Positions 12,733-22,617 of a stretch of 64,000 nt of DNA are shown one piece after another (position 1 is the stretch's first letter; each line of letters begins with the position of its first letter). The position numbers and the translations under genes are program-made. Source of the stretch: Mesotoga sp. BH458_6_3_2_1 (GTDB lineage Bacteria > Thermotogota > Thermotogae > Petrotogales > Kosmotogaceae); contig NZ_JFHL01000002.1 of assembly GCF_003664995.1 (NCBI RefSeq), positions 310,001-374,000 of the forward strand, given 5' to 3'. The notes under the pieces were generated by a model. The model was not told where the DNA came from, did no database searches, and was given only the letters and a program-made list of their open reading frames with translations.

Positions 12733-14295
12733 ATGGGAATTAAGGTAAGAAGACTTTTGGCTGTGGCAGTAGTAATCACGCTAAGTGGATTGGCGCTTGC
12801 ATGTACTATCTTTGGTGTGGGTAAAGATGCAATGGCGGATGGCTCTACAGTAATTACGCACAACGACGATTCTACATCTGCAGATTTCCGTCTATGGATC
12901 ATTCCGGCAATGGATTGGCCGGAAGGTTCGATGAGAGATATCGTAATCAACTCGCACAACTACATCGATTACGGGGACTATCCTAATGTCGAGATTGGCG
13001 ACAGAGGGGTTCTAGTCGGACAAATCCCGCAGGTTGAGCACACCTATGCGTACTTCCATTCCAGATATTCATTCATAAACGAAATGGGAGTGGCAATGGG
13101 AGAATCCACCGCGGGTTGTAGGAGAGAGTTAAGAGATACCCTAGGGATGATCGACTGTTGGACAGCACAAGATATCGCGCTCGAAAGAGCAACGACGGCA
13201 AGAGAGGCCGTCCGAATAATGGGAGATCTTGTCGAGAATTACGGTTGGTATGGTTCGGGTGAAATCATCAACGTGACTGACGGAAACGAGGTCTGGATAG
13301 CCGAGTTCTATGGACGCGATCTTTGGGTTGCGGTAAGAATGCCCGATGATTGTGTATTTGTTGGGGCAAATACAATGAGAATCCGCGATGTTGATTTCGA
13401 AGATGCGGAAAACGTTATGTATGCTCCGAACCTCATCTCCTATGCAGTTGAGCAAGGATGGTACGATCCCAATTCAGGCGAACCCTTCAGGCCTGCAGAC
13501 GTCTATGCGCCTCGAACGAGCATGAACATCAGAGAGTGGAGAGCTCTTAGCTGGTTTGCGCCTTCACTTGGCCTTGAATACGGTCAGGTACATTACCCAC
13601 TTTGGGTCAAGCCAGACAAAAAGCTTACTGTCTTTGACATCTTTACTATTTCGGGCGATTGGTACGAAGGAACTGAATTCGATCTTACGAAAGGAATTGG
13701 CGCTGGACCATTTGGCGATCCATTTGCAAGCTACAGAGTGGGAGGAAGGCAGAGACCCATAGGTATTTACCTGAGTTGTTACGTACAGATTAGTCAAATC
13801 AAGAACTGGTTGCCACCGGAAATTGGATCCGTAGTGTGGTTTGGTTACGGTGGAGGCGGGACACAGTATCACACACCTCTTTGGCCAGCAATGGCAGAGC
13901 TCCCTGAATTCTATCAAGTTGGATCAAGATATGAAGACTTCAGGCGGGATTCAGGTTGGTGGACCAGCACCTATGTGCAGGAAATGACGAGGCTAAGATT
14001 CAGTGATGCGATTGTTGATCTCAGGAACTTCAGAGATCCAAAGATGAAGGTTGTGTATGAAACAGTGCCAACCCTTCAGGAATACGCCGCAGAAATTTAC
14101 AAGACCGATAAGGATGCCGCACTTGCAATCATAAGTGATTATGCGTACAACACAGCGGTTGCGTGGCAGGCCGACTGGCTAAAGTTCGGAGATTATTTGG
14201 TGGGCAATTACTGTGCAGACAGGATTAACTTCGGGACAGGTTTGCCTAAAGAGTGGGGAGAAGTCCTAGACTCCTTGAATAACCAGGATTCCTAA
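12733..14295 (+). CDS. Exported C69 family dipeptidase, copy 1
   Basis: A 520-residue peptidase of family C69 (formerly U34; PepD type), an Ntn hydrolase that cleaves dipeptides. The nucleophile is Cys24 in LALACTIFGVGKDAMADGS. It lies exactly after a signal peptide whose end reads Ala-Leu-Ala, a signal peptidase I site, so export itself would expose the N-terminal cysteine. Conserved family blocks follow (ITHNDDS, MGESTAGC, MIDCWTAQDIALERA). A GGGGGTAGG site precedes ATG 12733. It is a tandem paralogue of the next gene, very similar at DNA level in the 5' third. Confidence 0.88.
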   Translation: MGIKVRRLLAVAVVITLSGLALACTIFGVGKDAMADGSTVITHNDDSTSADFRLWIIPAMDWPEGSMRDIVINSHNYIDYGDYPNVEIGDRGVLVGQIPQVEHTYAYFHSRYSFINEMGVAMGESTAGCRRELRDTLGMIDCWTAQDIALERATTAREAVRIMGDLVENYGWYGSGEIINVTDGNEVWIAEFYGRDLWVAVRMPDDCVFVGANTMRIRDVDFEDAENVMYAPNLISYAVEQGWYDPNSGEPFRPADVYAPRTSMNIREWRALSWFAPSLGLEYGQVHYPLWVKPDKKLTVFDIFTISGDWYEGTEFDLTKGIGAGPFGDPFASYRVGGRQRPIGIYLSCYVQISQIKNWLPPEIGSVVWFGYGGGGTQYHTPLWPAMAELPEFYQVGSRYEDFRRDSGWWTSTYVQEMTRLRFSDAIVDLRNFRDPKMKVVYETVPTLQEYAAEIYKTDKDAALAIISDYAYNTAVAWQADWLKFGDYLVGNYCADRINFGTGLPKEWGEVLDSLNNQDS

Positions 14296-14409
14296 GGATC
14301 TTCGACTAACTTGCATTTCATCTGGGAGGTGGGATCAGAGTCAGATTACTGAAGCTGTAAAGTTCTTTCAGCAACAACAAATTTATTCTAGTTGGGGTGA
14401 TGTACTTTT

Positions 14410-16023
14410 ATGAAGAAAGCAATAATAGTCCTGATTGTGGCACTTATTACTTTAGGAAGCAGCGCCGTAGCGTGTACAATCCTTGGTGTTGGTAAGGATG
14501 CAATGGTTGACGGAACTACCATAATTACACACAACGATGACTCCACAAGCGCCGATTTCCGTCTGTGGATCATTCCGGCGATGGATTGGCCTGAAGGTTC
14601 CATGAGAGACATCGTTCTCGATTCCCACAATTACATCGATTACGGCAATTACCCGGAAGTCAATATTGGTACAAGGGGCACTCTTATAGCACAGATTCCT
14701 CAGGTTGCCCATACTTACCAGTACTTCCACTCGAGATACTCCTTCATGAATGAAAAGGGAGTTGCAGTAAGTGAGTCGACATTCAGCATCGACACTAGCA
14801 CAGACTACGGCAAGGAAGTGAGAAAGGTTCTCTGGACAGACAGCATGGGAATCATCGACTGCTGGACCGCCCAGGACATAGCTCTTGAGAGAGCGGCAAC
14901 TGCAAGAGAGGCCGTAAGAGTCATGGGAGACCTTGTCGAGCAGTACGGATGGAGCACTGTTGGTGGCGGCGGAGAGACGATGACCGTTGCCGACGGTGAA
15001 GAGTGCTGGATTGTTGAGTTTTACGGAAGAGATATCTGGGTTGGCGTAAGAATTCCTAGCGATCACTTCACAGTTGCTGCGAACAGAGCAAGGATCATGG
15101 AAGTCGATTTCGAAGATACTGACAACGTAATGGCTTCTCCAAACATCGTGTCCTTTGCTGTTGAGCAGGGCTGGTACGATCCCAATTCCGGCAAACCCTT
15201 CAATGTCGCCGAAATCTATGCTCCAAATGACAACCTTTACGCTACAAGAAGAGAGTGGAGAGCATTTGATCTAGTGGCTCCATCACTGGGTCTAAGCCCA
15301 CACGATGTAAGATTCCCTCTTTCTGTCAAGCCTGACAGACTGCTTACGGTTCACGATATTTTCACTATCAAAGGCGATTACTATCAGGGAACGGATTACG
15401 ATCTTACTGTAGGACTTGCCGCCGGACCCTGGGGCGACCCTCTCAGATATGCAAATTCAGGCAGGACCGGCTCCTGGGAGAGAAGCATAAACATGCACAG
15501 AACTTGCTACGTTCACATCGGCCAGACAAATTCTGCCTACGCGGAGCCTTTCAGAGGCATTTCCTGGTACGGCTACGGCGCACCTGATACAGCTTACATC
15601 GTTCCTCTTTGGCCTATCATGAGAGAGCTTCCGAAGTTCTACGAAACTGGAAGCAGGTATGAAGAGTTCAGAAGAGACTCCGGCTGGTGGGTCAGTTCCT
15701 ACGTGCAGCAGATGGCTGAACTCCATTACAACCTGGCAATTGAGGATATCAGGAATTACAGAAATCCGAAGTTGGAGGTTCTATACAAGGTTACTCCAAA
15801 AATGCTCGAACTGGCAACAGAGATGTACGAAACAGATCCCGAAGCAGCAATCGATCTTGTTTCAAATTACGCTTTCATGAATGCCGTAGCGTGGTTTGAA
15901 GAATGGAAACTGCTTGGAGACAGACTTCTTGGAAACTATGCTCTCGGATATGTTAATTTCAGGTCATCTCCATATCCCGATTGGTGGAACGAGGCAATCG
16001 GTTACGGGTTCCCTGAAAGATAA
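14410..16023 (+). CDS. Exported C69 family dipeptidase, copy 2
   Basis: This 537-residue C69 dipeptidase closely resembles the preceding gene through its length. Catalytic Cys22 follows a signal peptide ending Ala-Val-Ala, again a signal peptidase I site that would unmask the nucleophile. Relative to copy 1 it carries a longer loop near residue 120 (after SESTF) before the shared IIDCWTAQDIALERA block. The start ATG 14410 has GGGGTGATG at about 8 nt. A strong terminator follows, closing the cassette that starts at 9327. The two copies may have diverged in dipeptide specificity. Confidence 0.9.
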   Translation: MKKAIIVLIVALITLGSSAVACTILGVGKDAMVDGTTIITHNDDSTSADFRLWIIPAMDWPEGSMRDIVLDSHNYIDYGNYPEVNIGTRGTLIAQIPQVAHTYQYFHSRYSFMNEKGVAVSESTFSIDTSTDYGKEVRKVLWTDSMGIIDCWTAQDIALERAATAREAVRVMGDLVEQYGWSTVGGGGETMTVADGEECWIVEFYGRDIWVGVRIPSDHFTVAANRARIMEVDFEDTDNVMASPNIVSFAVEQGWYDPNSGKPFNVAEIYAPNDNLYATRREWRAFDLVAPSLGLSPHDVRFPLSVKPDRLLTVHDIFTIKGDYYQGTDYDLTVGLAAGPWGDPLRYANSGRTGSWERSINMHRTCYVHIGQTNSAYAEPFRGISWYGYGAPDTAYIVPLWPIMRELPKFYETGSRYEEFRRDSGWWVSSYVQQMAELHYNLAIEDIRNYRNPKLEVLYKVTPKMLELATEMYETDPEAAIDLVSNYAFMNAVAWFEEWKLLGDRLLGNYALGYVNFRSSPYPDWWNEAIGYGFPER

Positions 16024-16555: not shown

Positions 16556-16580
16556 AAGGGGCCGTTCGGCCCCTTTTTTT
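16556..16580 (+). terminator. Intrinsic terminator after the acidic coiled-coil gene
   Basis: GGGGCC (16558-16563) pairs with GGCCCC (16568-16573) around GTTC, followed by seven T residues. Confidence 0.9.
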
Positions 16581-16627: not shown

Positions 16628-18754
16628 TCAAGTATCAGAAGGATAAACAATGATAGCCTCCGATAGCTCTTCAAGTAATGAGGAGTCGTATAGCCTATGA
16701 ATCACATATTTCACCAGAAGCTCATCCGGAACGAATTTGTCCAATTTCTCGCCAAAGAGATCATATTGTTTTCTTAACTCCTTCGGCGTTCCTAAAAGAT
16801 AGGTTGACAAAAGCCCTGATATTTCTCCACGTTCCATATTGGAGATTAACGACAACATCTCGTGAAGCTCGTCAGTGTCTGCCCCATTCCTCACAACTAC
16901 ACTGTGCCAGTTAGCACTAACTGCTTTTAGACCGGAAACAGCCTTTATGCACAGAGAAAGAAAGATGTTTGACATATCGCCTGCAAAGGTTTCTATTACT
17001 ATGCTCTTCTTAAGTTTTGAAAGTGAAATCAAAGCTGAAGAAGCTTGGTGATTACTGAGGAAGTCCAGTATCATATGTGAAGCGTCCGATGATAGGAAAA
17101 CTCCATCGGGAATCTTCAGGTCATTCAACGAGGATCTTATGGATCGCGCGAATTCTTTTGTCATCAACGAGCTGCCTCCAAACCATGAAGGAGTCTTTCC
17201 ACTGCTTCCGGGAATAACGTTTACGGTTTTCCTACCTGAATTGACTTCCTTGACCAAATAAGATCGTCCACCTAGAAGGAAGCTGACTTCATCGTCTGAA
17301 GAGCTACTGAGAACTGCAGGATGGATCTTTCCTATTTCATGTCCATTGAGCTGAACCGAATATTCAAATCCGCCTGGAAAGAGCACAACGAAATCCATCT
17401 TTTCCTTTCCGCTTCCTACAATCTCCGCCGTGGCGGCCCCAGAGATTATTGAAAGGTCTCTCCTGGCAAGAAAGGCCTCTTTTACAAGGTGATTCACCAG
17501 AATCTCGAATTCCTCGGTCTCGACCTTTTTGAAAGGGAAGGCTTCTTTGAGAATTGCAAGGTCCACCGCAGAGAGAAAGCCCCTGGTTCTGGCAAGCCCA
17601 ATCAACTGGTGACCCAACAATGGAAGATGATGGTCGCTGGGTAGAAGCGGTTCGACAGATCCCTCACTTAACATTCCCAAAATTCCCAGAAGGTTGTACA
17701 GGCTTTGTGGATCCTCTACGAAGACGGAAATTGAAGACTTGTTTCCCTTTCTTCCCGCTCGTCCGGCCCTTTGAAGAAAAGAAGCAGTAGACGGCGGAAT
17801 CTCAAGGAAGATCACTCTATCAATGTCACCTATATCTATGCCCATTTCCAAAGTCGACGTAGCAACTATCGCCCTTAGTTTGTTATCTTGCTTGAATTCC
17901 TCTTCTATCTCAACTCTGAGTGTTTTCGATACTGAACTATGGTGAACGGGGACTTCTATTCCAAGAGCTCTAGCTCTTGCAGCGAATTCCTCGGCGCGCG
18001 CCCTTGAGTACGAGAAGACGAGAATCTTATCATCGGTTTCTTCAAGAAGCTTCGAAAGATATTCAGAAGGAACCACTTCTCCTTCGGTGAGAACTTCAAT
18101 CGTTTTCTCCCTTCTGTTTTCATCGGTCACGATCACTGAATCTCTTCTAGAACTCCCCCTTAGCCACTCCAAAAGCAACTCAGGATTTCCTACCGTGGCA
18201 GACATTGCGATTCTCTGTTGATCTAGACCAGAAAGAATCTTGATCCTCTCCATGAGTGAAGCAAGTTGAGCACCCCTCGGAGAGTCAATAAAGGCGTGAA
18301 CCTCATCCACAATTATGAATTCAAGAGAGGAAAGCAGATCACTATTCTCACTCAGAAAGATCCCTTCAACTGATTCAGGTGTAGTGACAAGTATCGAGGC
18401 TTCTCTTGCAATAGGCAACTTCTCTGATCTTGTCAAATCTCCGTGCCATTTAGCCGCTACTAATCCAAATGGTCTAAGCATAAGCTCAAGGCGAGATGAA
18501 ACATCGTTGATTAACGATTTGAGCGGGGCAAAGTAGATGCATTTCAGTCCAGCGGGAAGCTCCAGCAGTCTGTTAATGACGGGAATCATCACAGCTTCTG
18601 TCTTGCCAGAAGCAGTCCCCGCTATCAACAACAGATTCTTTCCGTCAAGAACTGACGGAATAGTCTTGCTCTGAATCTCTCTAAAACTCTGCCAGCGGTA
18701 TCTATATGAGAAGAGGTCTATCAGTTTCTGATTAAGTCTTGGATCGATTACCAC
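16628..18754 (-). CDS. Lhr-like DExH-box helicase (SngC/BrxH-like)
   Basis: A 708-residue superfamily 2 helicase. Readable motifs are the Q-motif region (Phe24...Gln28), Walker A AGTASGKTEA (residues 45-54), DEVH near residue 150, SAT near residue 198 and QRAGRAGRKG near residue 335. The DEVH box and RGAQL-type segment are Lhr-like, but the protein is shorter than classical Lhr. The C-terminal 330 residues are unassigned. It is the last gene of a four-gene operon; its GTG start overlaps the upstream ATPase by 7 nt and lacks a good ribosome-binding site, implying coupling. Comparable ATPase-helicase pairs occur in Shango (SngB-SngC) and BREX (BrxD-BrxH) defence systems. Confidence 0.85.
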   Translation of the reverse strand: MVIDPRLNQKLIDLFSYRYRWQSFREIQSKTIPSVLDGKNLLLIAGTASGKTEAVMIPVINRLLELPAGLKCIYFAPLKSLINDVSSRLELMLRPFGLVAAKWHGDLTRSEKLPIAREASILVTTPESVEGIFLSENSDLLSSLEFIIVDEVHAFIDSPRGAQLASLMERIKILSGLDQQRIAMSATVGNPELLLEWLRGSSRRDSVIVTDENRREKTIEVLTEGEVVPSEYLSKLLEETDDKILVFSYSRARAEEFAARARALGIEVPVHHSSVSKTLRVEIEEEFKQDNKLRAIVATSTLEMGIDIGDIDRVIFLEIPPSTASFLQRAGRAGRKGNKSSISVFVEDPQSLYNLLGILGMLSEGSVEPLLPSDHHLPLLGHQLIGLARTRGFLSAVDLAILKEAFPFKKVETEEFEILVNHLVKEAFLARRDLSIISGAATAEIVGSGKEKMDFVVLFPGGFEYSVQLNGHEIGKIHPAVLSSSSDDEVSFLLGGRSYLVKEVNSGRKTVNVIPGSSGKTPSWFGGSSLMTKEFARSIRSSLNDLKIPDGVFLSSDASHMILDFLSNHQASSALISLSKLKKSIVIETFAGDMSNIFLSLCIKAVSGLKAVSANWHSVVVRNGADTDELHEMLSLISNMERGEISGLLSTYLLGTPKELRKQYDLFGEKLDKFVPDELLVKYVIHRLYDSSLLEELSEAIIVYPSDT

Positions 18755-19941
18755 AGCTGATCAGCAGCTTTCACCGAATCCGGGTCTCCAATTTCATCGG
18801 ACTTCTTACCGAGTCTCAGAGAGTCAAGCAGTTCAACAGTAAGCTTTGCCACTTCTCTGATGGAAGGTCTTAATTTTCCATCGATTCCCGTGTATTGTTT
18901 CATGAGGGTATCGATAGTCTTTTCTTCAAAAGCGGAGTCTGCCGCGAATGAATAGCAGTTAGAGTATAGCGTCTTGATCTGTTTAATTAGCTGTTTAAGA
19001 TCATTTCTTCCGAGTGGTTCAAGACTGAGAATCATGGTTTTTCCACTGCTATCACCGGAGATATTTTTCATCCTGTCGTACAAAGCGTGGTAAGATGCTA
19101 TTCCCCGGTGTTTATTCTCGAACCATATGTCCGTCCCAAGCCACAAAAAGTAGGTACTCTGTAGAAATCCTGAAGACATCTTGTCGATTATCTCACGAAG
19201 CTGATTGAAAGTCCTATCCCTAACATCTCTCCTTCTATTCATAGTTGATTCAAGTTCATCCATAATTACTATTAGTCCGGGTACTTGCAAAGTACCCATC
19301 AAAGAAGTAAAAGACTTCAAGAAGTTCCAACCATCATCCTGTAGGAAGTGGTATATCCCGTGTTTCTTCATAGTTCTTCTGTCCACACTGTCTCCAACGA
19401 GATATGCGTAAAATTCTTCGCCAGGAGCCCCCTTGCCTGCGCTGGCAACATAGGCTGCGCAAAAGTGAGAGAACATTCCATTAGGATCGTAATTGTCTCT
19501 GGTTGATAGATATTCTCTTACTGAATTCACATCATCAGCAGGGATCTTCAGTTCATCCAGTTCAGTAATAGTCTTTTCTGCCCATGCTCTGAGAAACATT
19601 TTCAAAGGGTTGCCGTTGATTCCCACCATTGTCATGTTCTTCATTATCGACCTGAAAAACTCATCCTGTTTGTGAAGAGTGTCGTAGTCCTTTTCTGAAA
19701 GGCAGGAAATCATCAATCCCTTTTCCCTTGAGATATATTCGGCGTATCTTGCTAGAGTCGTCTTACCCAGACCGTATTCACCTAGAAAGACCCTAACTTT
19801 GCTCTTTCCTGAGAGAACATAGTCAATGTCATTTTCTATCTCCATTGTATATTTTTCTCGACCAGTCAAAATCTCCTTTACATAATCAACCGGAACGGCG
19901 GTTCCGGCCCTTATTGCCTCAAACATGGGGTGGTAATCCAC
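18748..19941 (-). CDS. BrxC/BrxD (DUF2791)-like P-loop ATPase (SngB-like)
   Basis: A 397-residue AAA-type ATPase. The N-terminus (AIRAGTAVP, GREKYTMEIENDI) leads into Walker A GEYGLGKTT (residues 54-62). A hydrophobic strand followed by DELEST near residue 235 is the Walker B/glutamate region, followed by the RTFNQLREIID helix typical of DUF2791 proteins such as BrxD. The family members known in defence loci pair with Lhr-like helicases, and here the helicase gene overlaps by 7 nt. GTG 19941 is preceded by AAAGGAGA. The family call is from motif order and context, not from an alignment. Confidence 0.78.
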   Translation of the reverse strand: MDYHPMFEAIRAGTAVPVDYVKEILTGREKYTMEIENDIDYVLSGKSKVRVFLGEYGLGKTTLARYAEYISREKGLMISCLSEKDYDTLHKQDEFFRSIMKNMTMVGINGNPLKMFLRAWAEKTITELDELKIPADDVNSVREYLSTRDNYDPNGMFSHFCAAYVASAGKGAPGEEFYAYLVGDSVDRRTMKKHGIYHFLQDDGWNFLKSFTSLMGTLQVPGLIVIMDELESTMNRRRDVRDRTFNQLREIIDKMSSGFLQSTYFLWLGTDIWFENKHRGIASYHALYDRMKNISGDSSGKTMILSLEPLGRNDLKQLIKQIKTLYSNCYSFAADSAFEEKTIDTLMKQYTGIDGKLRPSIREVAKLTVELLDSLRLGKKSDEIGDPDSVKAADQLW

Positions 19942-19963
19942 AGAAATCTCCTTTCACTTTGCA

Positions 19964-22102
19964 TTATTCATCTGAAGCAAATCTCGCCCTAAGCAGGTCC
20001 CTTGTTTCTTCATCAAAATTACATCCCCAGACCAGCTTCGGGACATCACCGCTAATTACTTCAATAAGCGCCTTTCCACCGCTGGTAACTTTCGGCGCAA
20101 CCACAAAAACGCTCCAGAAAGTCAAACCGAGTTCCTGAAGTGTGTATTCCTTTTCCGGCTCACAAGAAAGAATTTTGCAGACAGTCTTCCGTGTCTTTCC
20201 CGCGAGTGCTTCAATTTTCTCTTCAAGCTCACTAAAGCCGTTTCTCTCTTCATGAACAGGCTCCGAAGAAACATGGCTAGCCTCGTTTCTTTCTAATTCA
20301 GGAAAGAGATATGCCCACTCCAGCTCATTCATTCTCTTGGCAGACCATTCGAGTTCATAATGAAGAGAGTTGATTTTCTCCAGTAAATCTGCAGTTATGG
20401 GATCTTCTTCCTCAAATCCGGATGATTCAAGAATTACGGTATCTTCGCCCTCCTCTACTAGCCTTTGCACTATCAGATCTTCGACTGTTTTTTTATCGTC
20501 ATCACTGTATTCTGAAGTTTCCTCACGAAACTCTGCCTTATTCCTGTTCTTCGCTTTCAAAGACGCGGGAAGGCCATTTTGGGGATACTCTTTCCAAGAA
20601 GACATAATTCGAGCTTCTTTCAAGAACTCGATAAAAGTCCTTGCGCTCTCTTCTTTCGCAAAGAAAAGCTTGATTAACGGAACCCCGTAACCCGTAGCAG
20701 AGACGGTCACTACATAGTAATTGAAACACTCTACCCTTTCGTTGTTCTTAGCTTCTTTGTCAGGACCCCCTCCGGGAAGGAGATACTTCCAGGTGTACCC
20801 GACGAAAAGTGCGTCTTTACTGTCTAGAAAAGCTTCTCTAGAAAGCTTTAGCTCTTCCAGCTTTGTCCTAATTGAGTTGAAAGGGAAGCTTCTCCCTGCT
20901 TTCTTGAGGCCCGACGATGTTATTGTAAGATCATCAACCGTACAAAGAACAAAGACTCCGTTGCTCTCTTCTCCCTTTACTGTGCGAAACTCACTCCTTC
21001 TTGCTGAATACCTCATTGTCTCACCTGCGTGAGCCAGAGGGTCTTTGATCTGTCGCTCTTCAACTATTGTCCAGCAAGCCCAACCGGTAATAGCCTTCTG
21101 AAAAGATGGGAGGATCTGGCCGCTTATCCTTTCGAAATACCACTTTCGGGCCTCCTCCCAGTGGCTTTGACAAAGCCCGTACTCCGTCCTTGCCTCTTTT
21201 ATTCCTTCTAGCCATGAAGCGAGAGTACCATGCCTTCTCAACCCCTTTTCAAGGAAGGATACAAAGAGATTGTCAGGGACTTTAAGCCAGTGCATGAAAG
21301 TTGAACTGTATTTCTTTATCTCTCTAATTATTGTTTCAAGTCGGGATAACTGAACCTCTATGTTGCTTTCATCATATTCGCCTACTGCCAGCTTAATCTG
21401 ATTCTCCAGAAATTTGCAGACTCCTTCTTCCTCAGGCGGAAACTGTGAAAGAAAATCAACCAGATCGGACTCAATCATCGGAAGCAATGAACAATCAAGG
21501 CTGAAAAGACTTGATACGATTCCATTCAGGGGAAGGCAGACCCCTAATTGATCGGCGGTTCGCCGCACTCTCTCGTAGAGAATTTTGAGCTCCCTCAGAC
21601 CTGTTACAAGAGATTCAGATTCGTCGACTATTTGATTGGCGTAATGTATTACTATTCTCTCAAGAATCTGAGGTGCCTCTTTGAAGTAATCTAGGAAACC
21701 CAGAAAGCTCTCTTCAAAGTGTGTTTTTTCCGTGGCTGCTTTCAAGAACACTTCTATTAGGTCGGAAGTTTTGTCCGATGTTTCGGAAAGCAGTTCGCCT
21801 TCAGCATTCCTAAATATGAAAGAATATCTAGTATCGAATAGTTTCTTGAAAATATTCGCCACCAGCGGAGCTTTGAGAGATACTAGAGCAGCATTTGAAT
21901 TTTCTATAAGCGGCTTCCAGTTCCTACCCTCAAGACCCTCATTGGCTTTCTCAATAACGTCTTCTTCAGACAAAAATGTTAAGAATTCCCGATAACGAGA
22001 ATTAGACAAAGTATATCCCTCACTTAAGGTGACTTCCAAGTTGATTATACTACACTTGAGAAGGCCGGTTCGCAGCTGCAGAATCGATCTTCTAGCGTCC
22101 AA
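19964..22102 (-). CDS. Large unknown protein of the ATPase-helicase operon (SngA position)
   Basis: A 712-residue protein I cannot assign to a family. The first 330 residues are helical and leucine-rich. Residues about 380-530 look like a beta-rich, PH-like domain (a repeated strand pattern around VDDLTITSSGLKKAGRSF and FFAKEESARTFIEFL). A charged linker follows, then a C-terminal globular segment from about residue 625. In Shango loci the equivalent position is a TerB-domain protein, but no TerB motif is evident. No signal peptide or membrane helix. It starts with TTG within the end of the upstream gene; the ribosome-binding site is weak, and the start is uncertain. Confidence 0.7.
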   Translation of the reverse strand: MDARRSILQLRTGLLKCSIINLEVTLSEGYTLSNSRYREFLTFLSEEDVIEKANEGLEGRNWKPLIENSNAALVSLKAPLVANIFKKLFDTRYSFIFRNAEGELLSETSDKTSDLIEVFLKAATEKTHFEESFLGFLDYFKEAPQILERIVIHYANQIVDESESLVTGLRELKILYERVRRTADQLGVCLPLNGIVSSLFSLDCSLLPMIESDLVDFLSQFPPEEEGVCKFLENQIKLAVGEYDESNIEVQLSRLETIIREIKKYSSTFMHWLKVPDNLFVSFLEKGLRRHGTLASWLEGIKEARTEYGLCQSHWEEARKWYFERISGQILPSFQKAITGWACWTIVEERQIKDPLAHAGETMRYSARRSEFRTVKGEESNGVFVLCTVDDLTITSSGLKKAGRSFPFNSIRTKLEELKLSREAFLDSKDALFVGYTWKYLLPGGGPDKEAKNNERVECFNYYVVTVSATGYGVPLIKLFFAKEESARTFIEFLKEARIMSSWKEYPQNGLPASLKAKNRNKAEFREETSEYSDDDKKTVEDLIVQRLVEEGEDTVILESSGFEEEDPITADLLEKINSLHYELEWSAKRMNELEWAYLFPELERNEASHVSSEPVHEERNGFSELEEKIEALAGKTRKTVCKILSCEPEKEYTLQELGLTFWSVFVVAPKVTSGGKALIEVISGDVPKLVWGCNFDEETRDLLRARFASDE

Positions 22103-22571
22103 CTTGCCGATCGATCATCTCCGCAAGATCCATCAACCTTTCCGCTATGAGAGTCTTGTTTTGACATGCTCTCAAGAATCTTTGATCTGATACCAGAGAT
22201 GGGAGACTCTCCCCAACCTTCTCCAATCTGGAAATTGCCAACAGAAGGTATGCCCCATCAATCAGCTTTCTTACGATTACGGGCAGTTTTTCTGACTTGT
22301 CGTATTCTGTTCTTTCAATGTCTGAAAAGAGAAAGTTGATCGACTCGAGTATCACTTTGAATGAGAAAAGCAGAATGTCTTCTTTCGTGTCTAGAGGTAA
22401 GCTTTCAAGCCTTCTGAGCTCCGTCTTGATCTCTGCCACTGCCAGTCTAGATTGTGAAGGGTCTTCAAGATACTTCTCCATTCTTTCCGCAGTTATTCCA
22501 AACAGATTGGCAATATCATCGGCGCTGCGACCTTCGGAGAGAAGCTTACGCAAAAAGTCCTTCTTGCTCAT
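22092..22571 (-). CDS. Small helical HTH-containing protein, first gene of the operon
   Basis: A 159-residue helical protein. Residues about 3-35 (FLRKLLSEGRSADDIANLFGIT) read like a helix-turn-helix of the recombinase/Sigma-70 region 4 sort, followed by four or five long amphipathic helices. Function unknown; it could be a regulator of the operon or a subunit of the complex. ATG 22571 is chosen because GAGGTGAT precedes it at about 5 nt; the upstream in-frame start at 22589 overlaps the promoter. It overlaps the next gene by 11 nt, showing that all four genes form one transcription unit. Confidence 0.65.
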   Translation of the reverse strand: MSKKDFLRKLLSEGRSADDIANLFGITAERMEKYLEDPSQSRLAVAEIKTELRRLESLPLDTKEDILLFSFKVILESINFLFSDIERTEYDKSEKLPVIVRKLIDGAYLLLAISRLEKVGESLPSLVSDQRFLRACQNKTLIAERLMDLAEMIDRQVGR

Positions 22572-22588: not shown

Positions 22589-22617
22589 ATTATATATCCA
22601 GTTTCTCAGCATTTTAA
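22589..22617 (-). promoter_or_regulatory. Promoter of the ATPase-helicase operon
   Basis: On the minus strand TTAAAA (22617-22612) and TATAAT (22594-22589) are separated by 17 bp, placing the start site close to the GAGGTGAT ribosome-binding site of the first gene. Confidence 0.6.

What the first reader, a model, noticed from the sequence alone, without database searches (positions are those of the whole stretch)
16628..22571. Four-gene ATPase-helicase operon resembling Shango or BREX defence modules
A promoter-led minus-strand operon encodes a small HTH-like helical protein, a 712-residue unknown, a BrxC/BrxD-like P-loop ATPase and an Lhr-like DExH helicase, with overlaps of 11 and 7 nt and one 22-nt gap. 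Known Shango loci have the order SngA (TerB domain), SngB (ATPase), SngC (helicase), and BREX subtypes pair BrxD with an Lhr-like helicase. Here sizes and order fit Shango, yet the large protein shows no evident TerB motif, and there is an extra first gene. No methylase, PglZ or nuclease is present. It could be a divergent Shango or a new four-gene system in Thermotogota.
Basis: partly seen in the sequence, partly recalled or inferred. Interest (0 to 1): 0.86.

Follow-up and report, generated by a model that had tools for sequence, protein, structure and literature searches.

The report
Third-lineage BREX/Shango-like ATPase-helicase module
A gene set in Mesotoga-type bacteria encodes a DNA-unwinding enzyme and its likely loading ATPase, related to parts of the BREX and Shango anti-virus systems but as a separate branch with an unrelated large partner protein; it is inherited as a fixed part of the genome, so an immune role is plausible but unproven.

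Summary
The four genes are real. The ATPase (397 aa) and helicase (708 aa) are full-length relatives of BrxD/SngB and BrxHI/SngC. They belong to neither family: their PADLOC scores (123/78 and 446/360 bits) are near the cross-family scores of true Shango and BREX-2 proteins (113-157 and 380-418) and far below same-family scores (566-1042). Trees place them in a separate Kosmotogaceae clade.

The large protein starts at a conserved TTG (681 aa, not 712; the 11-nt overlap is a start-call artefact). It has no TerB domain and no detectable SngA homology. In two sister-genus genomes its homologue carries an inserted WD40 propeller, and in another a WD40 protein ends in its C-terminal domain. No PglZ, methylase or nuclease lies in the operon. 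The core is three genes; the small HTH-like first gene is genus-specific.

All ten genus genomes keep the large gene, in one syntenic slot wherever contigs allow a check. No defence genes adjoin any copy. The genome's BREX-1 is patchy (BrxC in 5 of 17 family genomes). The module is dispensable: absent from one genus, damaged in two genomes.

Verdict: a new variant of the BrxD-BrxHI/SngBC kind; not Shango, not BREX. Helicase-loading DNA surveillance is most likely; phage defence unproven.

The parts
22092..22571 (-). gene 1: 159-aa all-helical protein with an HTH-like N-terminal part, genus-specific
   Evidence: ORF with ATG and GAGGTGAT ribosome-binding site conserved in 9 genomes; no family match; AlphaFold model all-helical, pLDDT 74, no significant fold match
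22589..22617 (-). sigma-70-like promoter of gene 1
   Evidence: TTAAAA-17-TATAAT; the TATAAT is invariant in nine genomes
22043..22057 (-). invariant promoter-like stretch AAGTGTAGTATAATC between gene 1 and the large gene
   Evidence: identical in all nine genomes aligned, in otherwise diverged intergenic sequence; promoter role inferred
19964..22009 (-). large partner protein, 681 aa from TTG (712 aa as longest ORF): small alpha/beta N-terminal part, helical middle, beta-rich part, disordered linker, conserved ~90-aa C-terminal domain
   Evidence: start and ribosome-binding site invariant; no Pfam/PADLOC/NCBIfam family; AlphaFold model; homologues found only in Kosmotogaceae
18748..19941 (-). 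BrxD/SngB-type AAA+ ATPase, 397 aa; Walker A GEYGLGKT and Walker B MDE present
   Evidence: PF10923 8.3e-42; BrxD 5.2e-36, SngB 1.5e-22; Walker A G54/G57/G59/K60 and Walker B D228/E229 invariant in 14 homologues
16628..18754 (-). BrxHI/SngC-type SF2 helicase with Lhr-like C-terminal region, 708 aa; motifs TASGKTE, DEVH, SATV, QRAGRAGR present
   Evidence: BrxHI 3.9e-134 over residues 8-698, SngC 7e-108; nearest solved chains are two ATP-dependent DNA helicases, 5v9x and 7lhl; motifs
16556..16575 (.). terminator-like hairpin between the helicase gene and the convergent small plus-strand gene
   Evidence: 8-pair stem with a T-run on the + strand; weak T-run on the - strand

Best explanation
It is a three-gene core (large partner + BrxD/SngB-type AAA+ ATPase + BrxHI/SngC-type helicase), with a genus-specific small gene ahead of it. 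It forms a third lineage of the ATPase-helicase dyad used by BREX type 2 and Shango. Shown: identity, intact catalytic motifs, conserved order, separate phylogenetic branch, an unrelated large protein (WD40-bearing in sister genera), fixed position in the genus with occasional loss. Inferred: the large protein acts as sensor/adaptor, the ORC/Cdc6-like ATPase assembles on DNA and loads or activates the Lhr/Ski2-type helicase, which unwinds or strips aberrant or foreign DNA. As there is no nuclease or self-marking enzyme in the operon, interference would come from helicase remodelling or from a host nuclease. The most likely benefit is intracellular surveillance against mobile elements or phages; I put anti-element defence at about 0.5 within this explanation.
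For: PF10923 and full-length BrxHI/SngC matches. Score controls: true SngB 566-585 bits, BrxD 686, SngC 830-898, BrxHI 1042, against 123/78 and 446/360 here. Trees with 100% support for a Kosmotogaceae clade apart from Shango and BREX-2, for both proteins. Big-ATPase-helicase order kept in four other family genomes at unrelated sites. WD40 insertion in two homologues of the large protein, and a WD40 protein sharing its C-terminal domain in a third genome. The helicase's best PADLOC families include BrxHI, SngC, DpdJ and DruE, reported in PMC12278908 as a potentially distinct SF2 clade defined by antiphage function. PMC12839542 describes BrxD-BrxHI as a tightly linked dyad and suggests that BrxD loads BrxHI. 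Dispensability: absent in three genomes of one genus, helicase frameshift in G023, ATPase and helicase lost beside a group II intron-type reverse-transcriptase ORF in G026.
Against: No defence genes beside it in Mesotoga or in the four other family genomes (neighbours: peptidases, sugar ABC transporters, hydrogenase, rpoBC). No mobility within the genus; vertical inheritance not rejected (AU p 0.15-0.16). The large protein was not found in plasmids or viral contigs, nor the ATPase in phages. Purifying selection, no sign of an arms race. No structure match for the large protein, so its sensor role is inference.
Confidence: 0.55

Rival explanations
1. A housekeeping genome-maintenance system: an Lhr-like helicase with a dedicated loader that repairs or restarts replication or clears R-loops in Kosmotogaceae, with no immune role.
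For: The large gene is present in all ten genus genomes, in one syntenic slot wherever contigs allow a check; no defence neighbours in any genus; descent compatible with vertical inheritance; purifying selection; contrast with patchy BREX-1 in the same genomes; Lhr winged-helix hint.
Against: Absent from all three genomes of a sister genus; the full set was not found in other Thermotogota; broken or lost in two genus members; the annotated plasmid relatives of the ATPase that I opened sit in BREX-2, Shango or similar loci.
Confidence: 0.3
2. A divergent Shango whose SngA has lost recognisable TerB domains.
For: Same order large protein-ATPase-helicase and similar sizes as Shango loci L056, L058 and L064.
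Against: No TerB_N/TerB/TerB_C match while the same library finds them in a real SngA; profile comparison with SngA gives 0.3% probability; ATPase and helicase outside the Sng clades and far below true SngB/SngC scores.
Confidence: 0.06
3. An accessory arm of the genome's own type 1 BREX, supplying a BREX-2-like helicase dyad in trans.
For: A type 1 BREX set (BrxA, BrxC, PglX, PglZ, BrxL) lies elsewhere in the genome.
Against: BrxC occurs in 5 of 17 family genomes and its presence does not follow the operon's; the loci lie on different contigs.
Confidence: 0.05

Closest known systems
BREX type 2 BrxD-BrxHI dyad
   Same: Adjacent BrxD-type AAA+ ATPase and Ski2/Lhr-type helicase; the helicase aligns over nearly the full BrxHI profile.
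   Different: No PglW, PglX, PglY/BrxC or PglZ in the operon; BLAST identity to BREX-2 proteins about 23-26% (ATPase) and 31-38% (helicase); separate clade.
Shango (SngABC)
   Same: Gene order large protein-ATPase-helicase, compact three-gene core, no nuclease or methylase.
   Different: No TerB domains, no SngA homology, separate clade, not in defence islands.
Deinococcus psychrotolerans plasmid locus (L055): LRV/HEAT-repeat protein + 451-aa protein + BrxD-like ATPase + helicase + HNH
   Same: BrxD-BrxHI-type dyad outside BREX, with a repeat-protein partner.
   Different: ATPase much closer to BrxD (1.8e-97); different partners; pair duplicated on a plasmid.
Lhr helicase
   Same: SF2 core, Lhr winged-helix match at E 1.2e-4 but below the curated cut-off.
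   Different: Far below the NCBIfam cut-offs of the large ATP-dependent helicase models; has a dedicated ATPase partner gene.

Membership tests
Shango | SngA with TerB domains | tested here: not met
   No TerB match in the large protein; control SngA has TerB_N 1.3e-47 and TerB_C 1.4e-26; hhalign probability 0.3%
Shango | ATPase of the SngB clade | tested here: not met
   78 bits against 566-585 for true SngB; tree
Shango | helicase of the SngC clade | tested here: not met
   360 bits against 830-898 for true SngC; tree
Shango | anti-phage activity | not testable with these tools
   needs plaque assays
BREX type 2 | PglZ, PglX, PglY/BrxC (and usually PglW) in the locus | tested here: not met
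   none in the operon or among the flanking genes examined; the genome's only PglZ match is at a separate type 1 BREX
BREX type 2 | adjacent BrxD-type ATPase and BrxHI-type helicase | tested here: inconclusive
   homologous pair, but 123 and 446 bits against 686 and 1042 for a BREX-2 pair, below the NCBIfam BrxD cut-off (124 against 350), and in a separate clade
BrxC/BrxD ATPase superfamily (PF10923) | full-domain match above the curated cut-off with Walker motifs | tested here: met
   144 bits against 22.2; motifs invariant
Mobile defence-island system | association with defence genes or mobile elements, patchy distribution | tested here: not met
   fixed slot across the genus, no defence neighbours, large protein not found in plasmids or viral contigs

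The most novel reading that the evidence does not exclude
A previously undescribed, vertically inherited core immune or genome-surveillance system of Kosmotogaceae: one conserved helicase-loading engine (BrxD-like ATPase + BrxHI-like helicase) joined to an exchangeable sensor protein (with or without a WD40 propeller), showing that this engine works without TerB, PglZ or DNA methylation.
Probability: 0.4. Interest if true: 0.7.

Novelty: new variant of a known kind. Interest (0 to 1): 0.48.

Why it matters
The role of the BrxD-BrxHI pair in BREX-2 and of SngB-SngC in Shango is not established; the proposal I found is helicase loading (PMC12839542). A minimal third lineage with no methylase, PglZ or TerB partner isolates this engine and makes its function testable. 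A conserved copy outside defence islands also questions whether the pair is always an immune part or also serves genome maintenance.

Tried and rejected
Shango membership (TerB and clade tests failed). BREX membership (no core genes). Homology of gene 1 with the 189-216-aa HTH-like protein found between the large gene and the ATPase in sister genera (hhalign 0.9%): rejected. Structure search of gene 1 and the large protein: no significant match; a PH-like reading of residues 343-504 rests on secondary structure, with weak Sec7-PH hits (E 0.02-0.08), and loose Pfam searches of the segments gave nothing. ATPase hits in three distant Thermotogota (G005-G007): their ATPase lies beside a small unassigned (partly coiled-coil-like) protein with no helicase found, a different context. 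A two-gene element upstream of the G019 copy looked like a defence ATPase in PADLOC but is an ABC-2 transporter. An apparent split helicase in G027 was a start-codon artefact; the G023 frameshift is in the assembly. The single genome-contig scan returned only close relatives, so the distribution outside Thermotogota is not established.

Full report
Setting. The window is G000:C2:310001-374000, in a 3.23-Mb, 36-contig genome. The closest named relatives are Mesotoga sp. and Kosmotogaceae, so the host is very probably Mesotoga, Thermotogota.

Anatomy. On the minus strand lie a small helical gene (22092-22571), a large gene, a BrxC/BrxD-family ATPase (18748-19941; PF10923 E 8.3e-42) and an SF2 helicase (16628-18754). 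Pfam, PADLOC and NCBIfam give no family for the first two. Alignment of nine genomes shows that the large gene starts at TTG 22009: the GAGGG site and TTGTC are invariant while the upstream ORF extension is not, and the G023 and G027 homologues begin there. The 11-nt overlap with gene 1 therefore vanishes. The ~82-nt gap holds AAGTGTAGTATAATC, identical in all nine genomes, a likely promoter of the three-gene unit. Gene 1 has its own conserved TATAAT. The ATPase keeps Walker A GEYGLGKT and Walker B MDE; the helicase keeps TASGKTE, DEVH, SATV and QRAGRAGR.

Which family? PADLOC scores the ATPase as BrxD 123 bits and SngB 78 bits, and the helicase as BrxHI 446 and SngC 360. As controls I took Shango and BREX-2 loci from plasmids. 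True Shango proteins score 566-585 (SngB) and 830-898 (SngC); a BREX-2 pair scores 686 (BrxD) and 1042 (BrxHI). Cross-family scores are 113-157 for the ATPase and 380-418 for the helicase. The window proteins thus stand at least as far from each family as the families stand from one another, apart from a slightly higher helicase score to BrxHI. Maximum-likelihood trees agree: the Kosmotogaceae ATPases and helicases are each one clade with 100% support, apart from the Shango and BREX-2 clades (some long branches). The large protein has no TerB domain (control SngA positive) and no profile similarity to SngA (0.3%).

Large partner. In a sister genus (G032, G033) the homologue is ~970 aa: the same N-terminal ~500 residues, then a WD40 propeller, then the same ~90-residue C-terminal domain. 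In G019 a 541-aa WD40 protein ends in that C-terminal domain. Mesotoga and G018 lack the propeller. A search with the G033 N-terminal part recovers the Mesotoga proteins reciprocally. AlphaFold gives a confident small alpha/beta N-terminal part, a helical middle and a beta-rich part, a low-confidence linker (about 505-619) and a folded C-terminus, without significant fold matches. I read the beta-rich part as possibly PH-like; that is a guess.

Distribution. Of 103 Thermotogota genomes, 14 match the large protein: all ten of the genus and four of the family. In the genus the genes sit in one slot between a tandem peptidase pair and a small plus-strand gene on one side, and an NHL-like gene and ABC transporter on the other. 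Contig ends limit the check in G026, and in G030 the genes lie on two short contigs. Elsewhere in the family the module is at other sites, for example directly after rpoBC in G032/G033, with the order large protein-(small HTH-like gene)-ATPase-helicase. The three genomes of genus g4 lack it. An rpoC tree and AU tests (p 0.15-0.16) do not reject vertical descent. In G026 the ATPase and helicase are gone beside a group II intron-type reverse-transcriptase ORF (a 640-contig assembly, so some caution); in G023 the helicase is frameshifted near residue 555. So the module is old, mostly vertical and dispensable.

Defence or not? For: the helicase's best PADLOC families include BrxHI, SngC, DpdJ and DruE, reported as a possibly distinct antiphage SF2 clade (PMC12278908), and the plasmid relatives of the ATPase that I opened sit in BREX-2, Shango or similar loci. 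Against: no defence neighbours in any genus, no mobility within the genus, purifying selection (dS is saturated for distant pairs). As a control, the genome's own type 1 BREX (contig C4; BrxA, BrxC, PglX, PglZ, BrxL) has a BrxC found in only 5 of 17 family genomes, the four others at 24-67% identity, which is how a defence system behaves here. The operon does not behave that way.

Mechanism. PMC12839542 describes BrxD-BrxHI as a linked dyad and proposes helicase loading. I extend that here: the large protein as sensor/adaptor, the ATPase as loader, the helicase as effector. Everything after 'homologous and co-conserved' is inference.

Novelty. I found no paper that describes this arrangement: no held paper has both Mesotoga and BREX, and PMC12839542 mentions neither TerB nor WD40. 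Only an open-access library was searched. It is a new variant of a known kind.

Noticed in passing
G000:C4 (L067 13623-19998, L068 2-6451): A type 1 BREX set (BrxA, a 177-aa gene in the BrxB position, BrxC, PglX, PglZ, BrxL); its BrxC is patchy among relatives.
   Followed up: partly
L055 2969-10903 and L065 1858-7346 (Deinococcus psychrotolerans plasmid): BrxD-like ATPase + BrxHI-like helicase + HNH genes without annotated PglZ or TerB; one copy is preceded by an LRV/HEAT-repeat protein, and the pair is tandemly duplicated. Possibly another undescribed dyad system.
   Followed up: partly
L051, L052, L053 (other Thermotogota): BrxC/D-family ATPase beside a small unassigned protein (with an alpha-2-macroglobulin gene next to it in L053) and no helicase found: an unrelated context for the same ATPase family.
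   Followed up: no
L049 7143-20000, L050 1-10184: In two genomes the WD40 version of the module lies directly downstream of rpoC.
   Followed up: partly
L059 515-12426 (Azospirillum plasmid, unannotated): BREX-like locus with Eco57I-type methylase, metallo-beta-lactamase-fold protein, PglZ, BrxD-like ATPase and BrxHI-like helicase.
   Followed up: partly
window 12733-16023: Two tandem, similar secreted C69-type dipeptidase genes (family named from memory, not searched).
   Followed up: no
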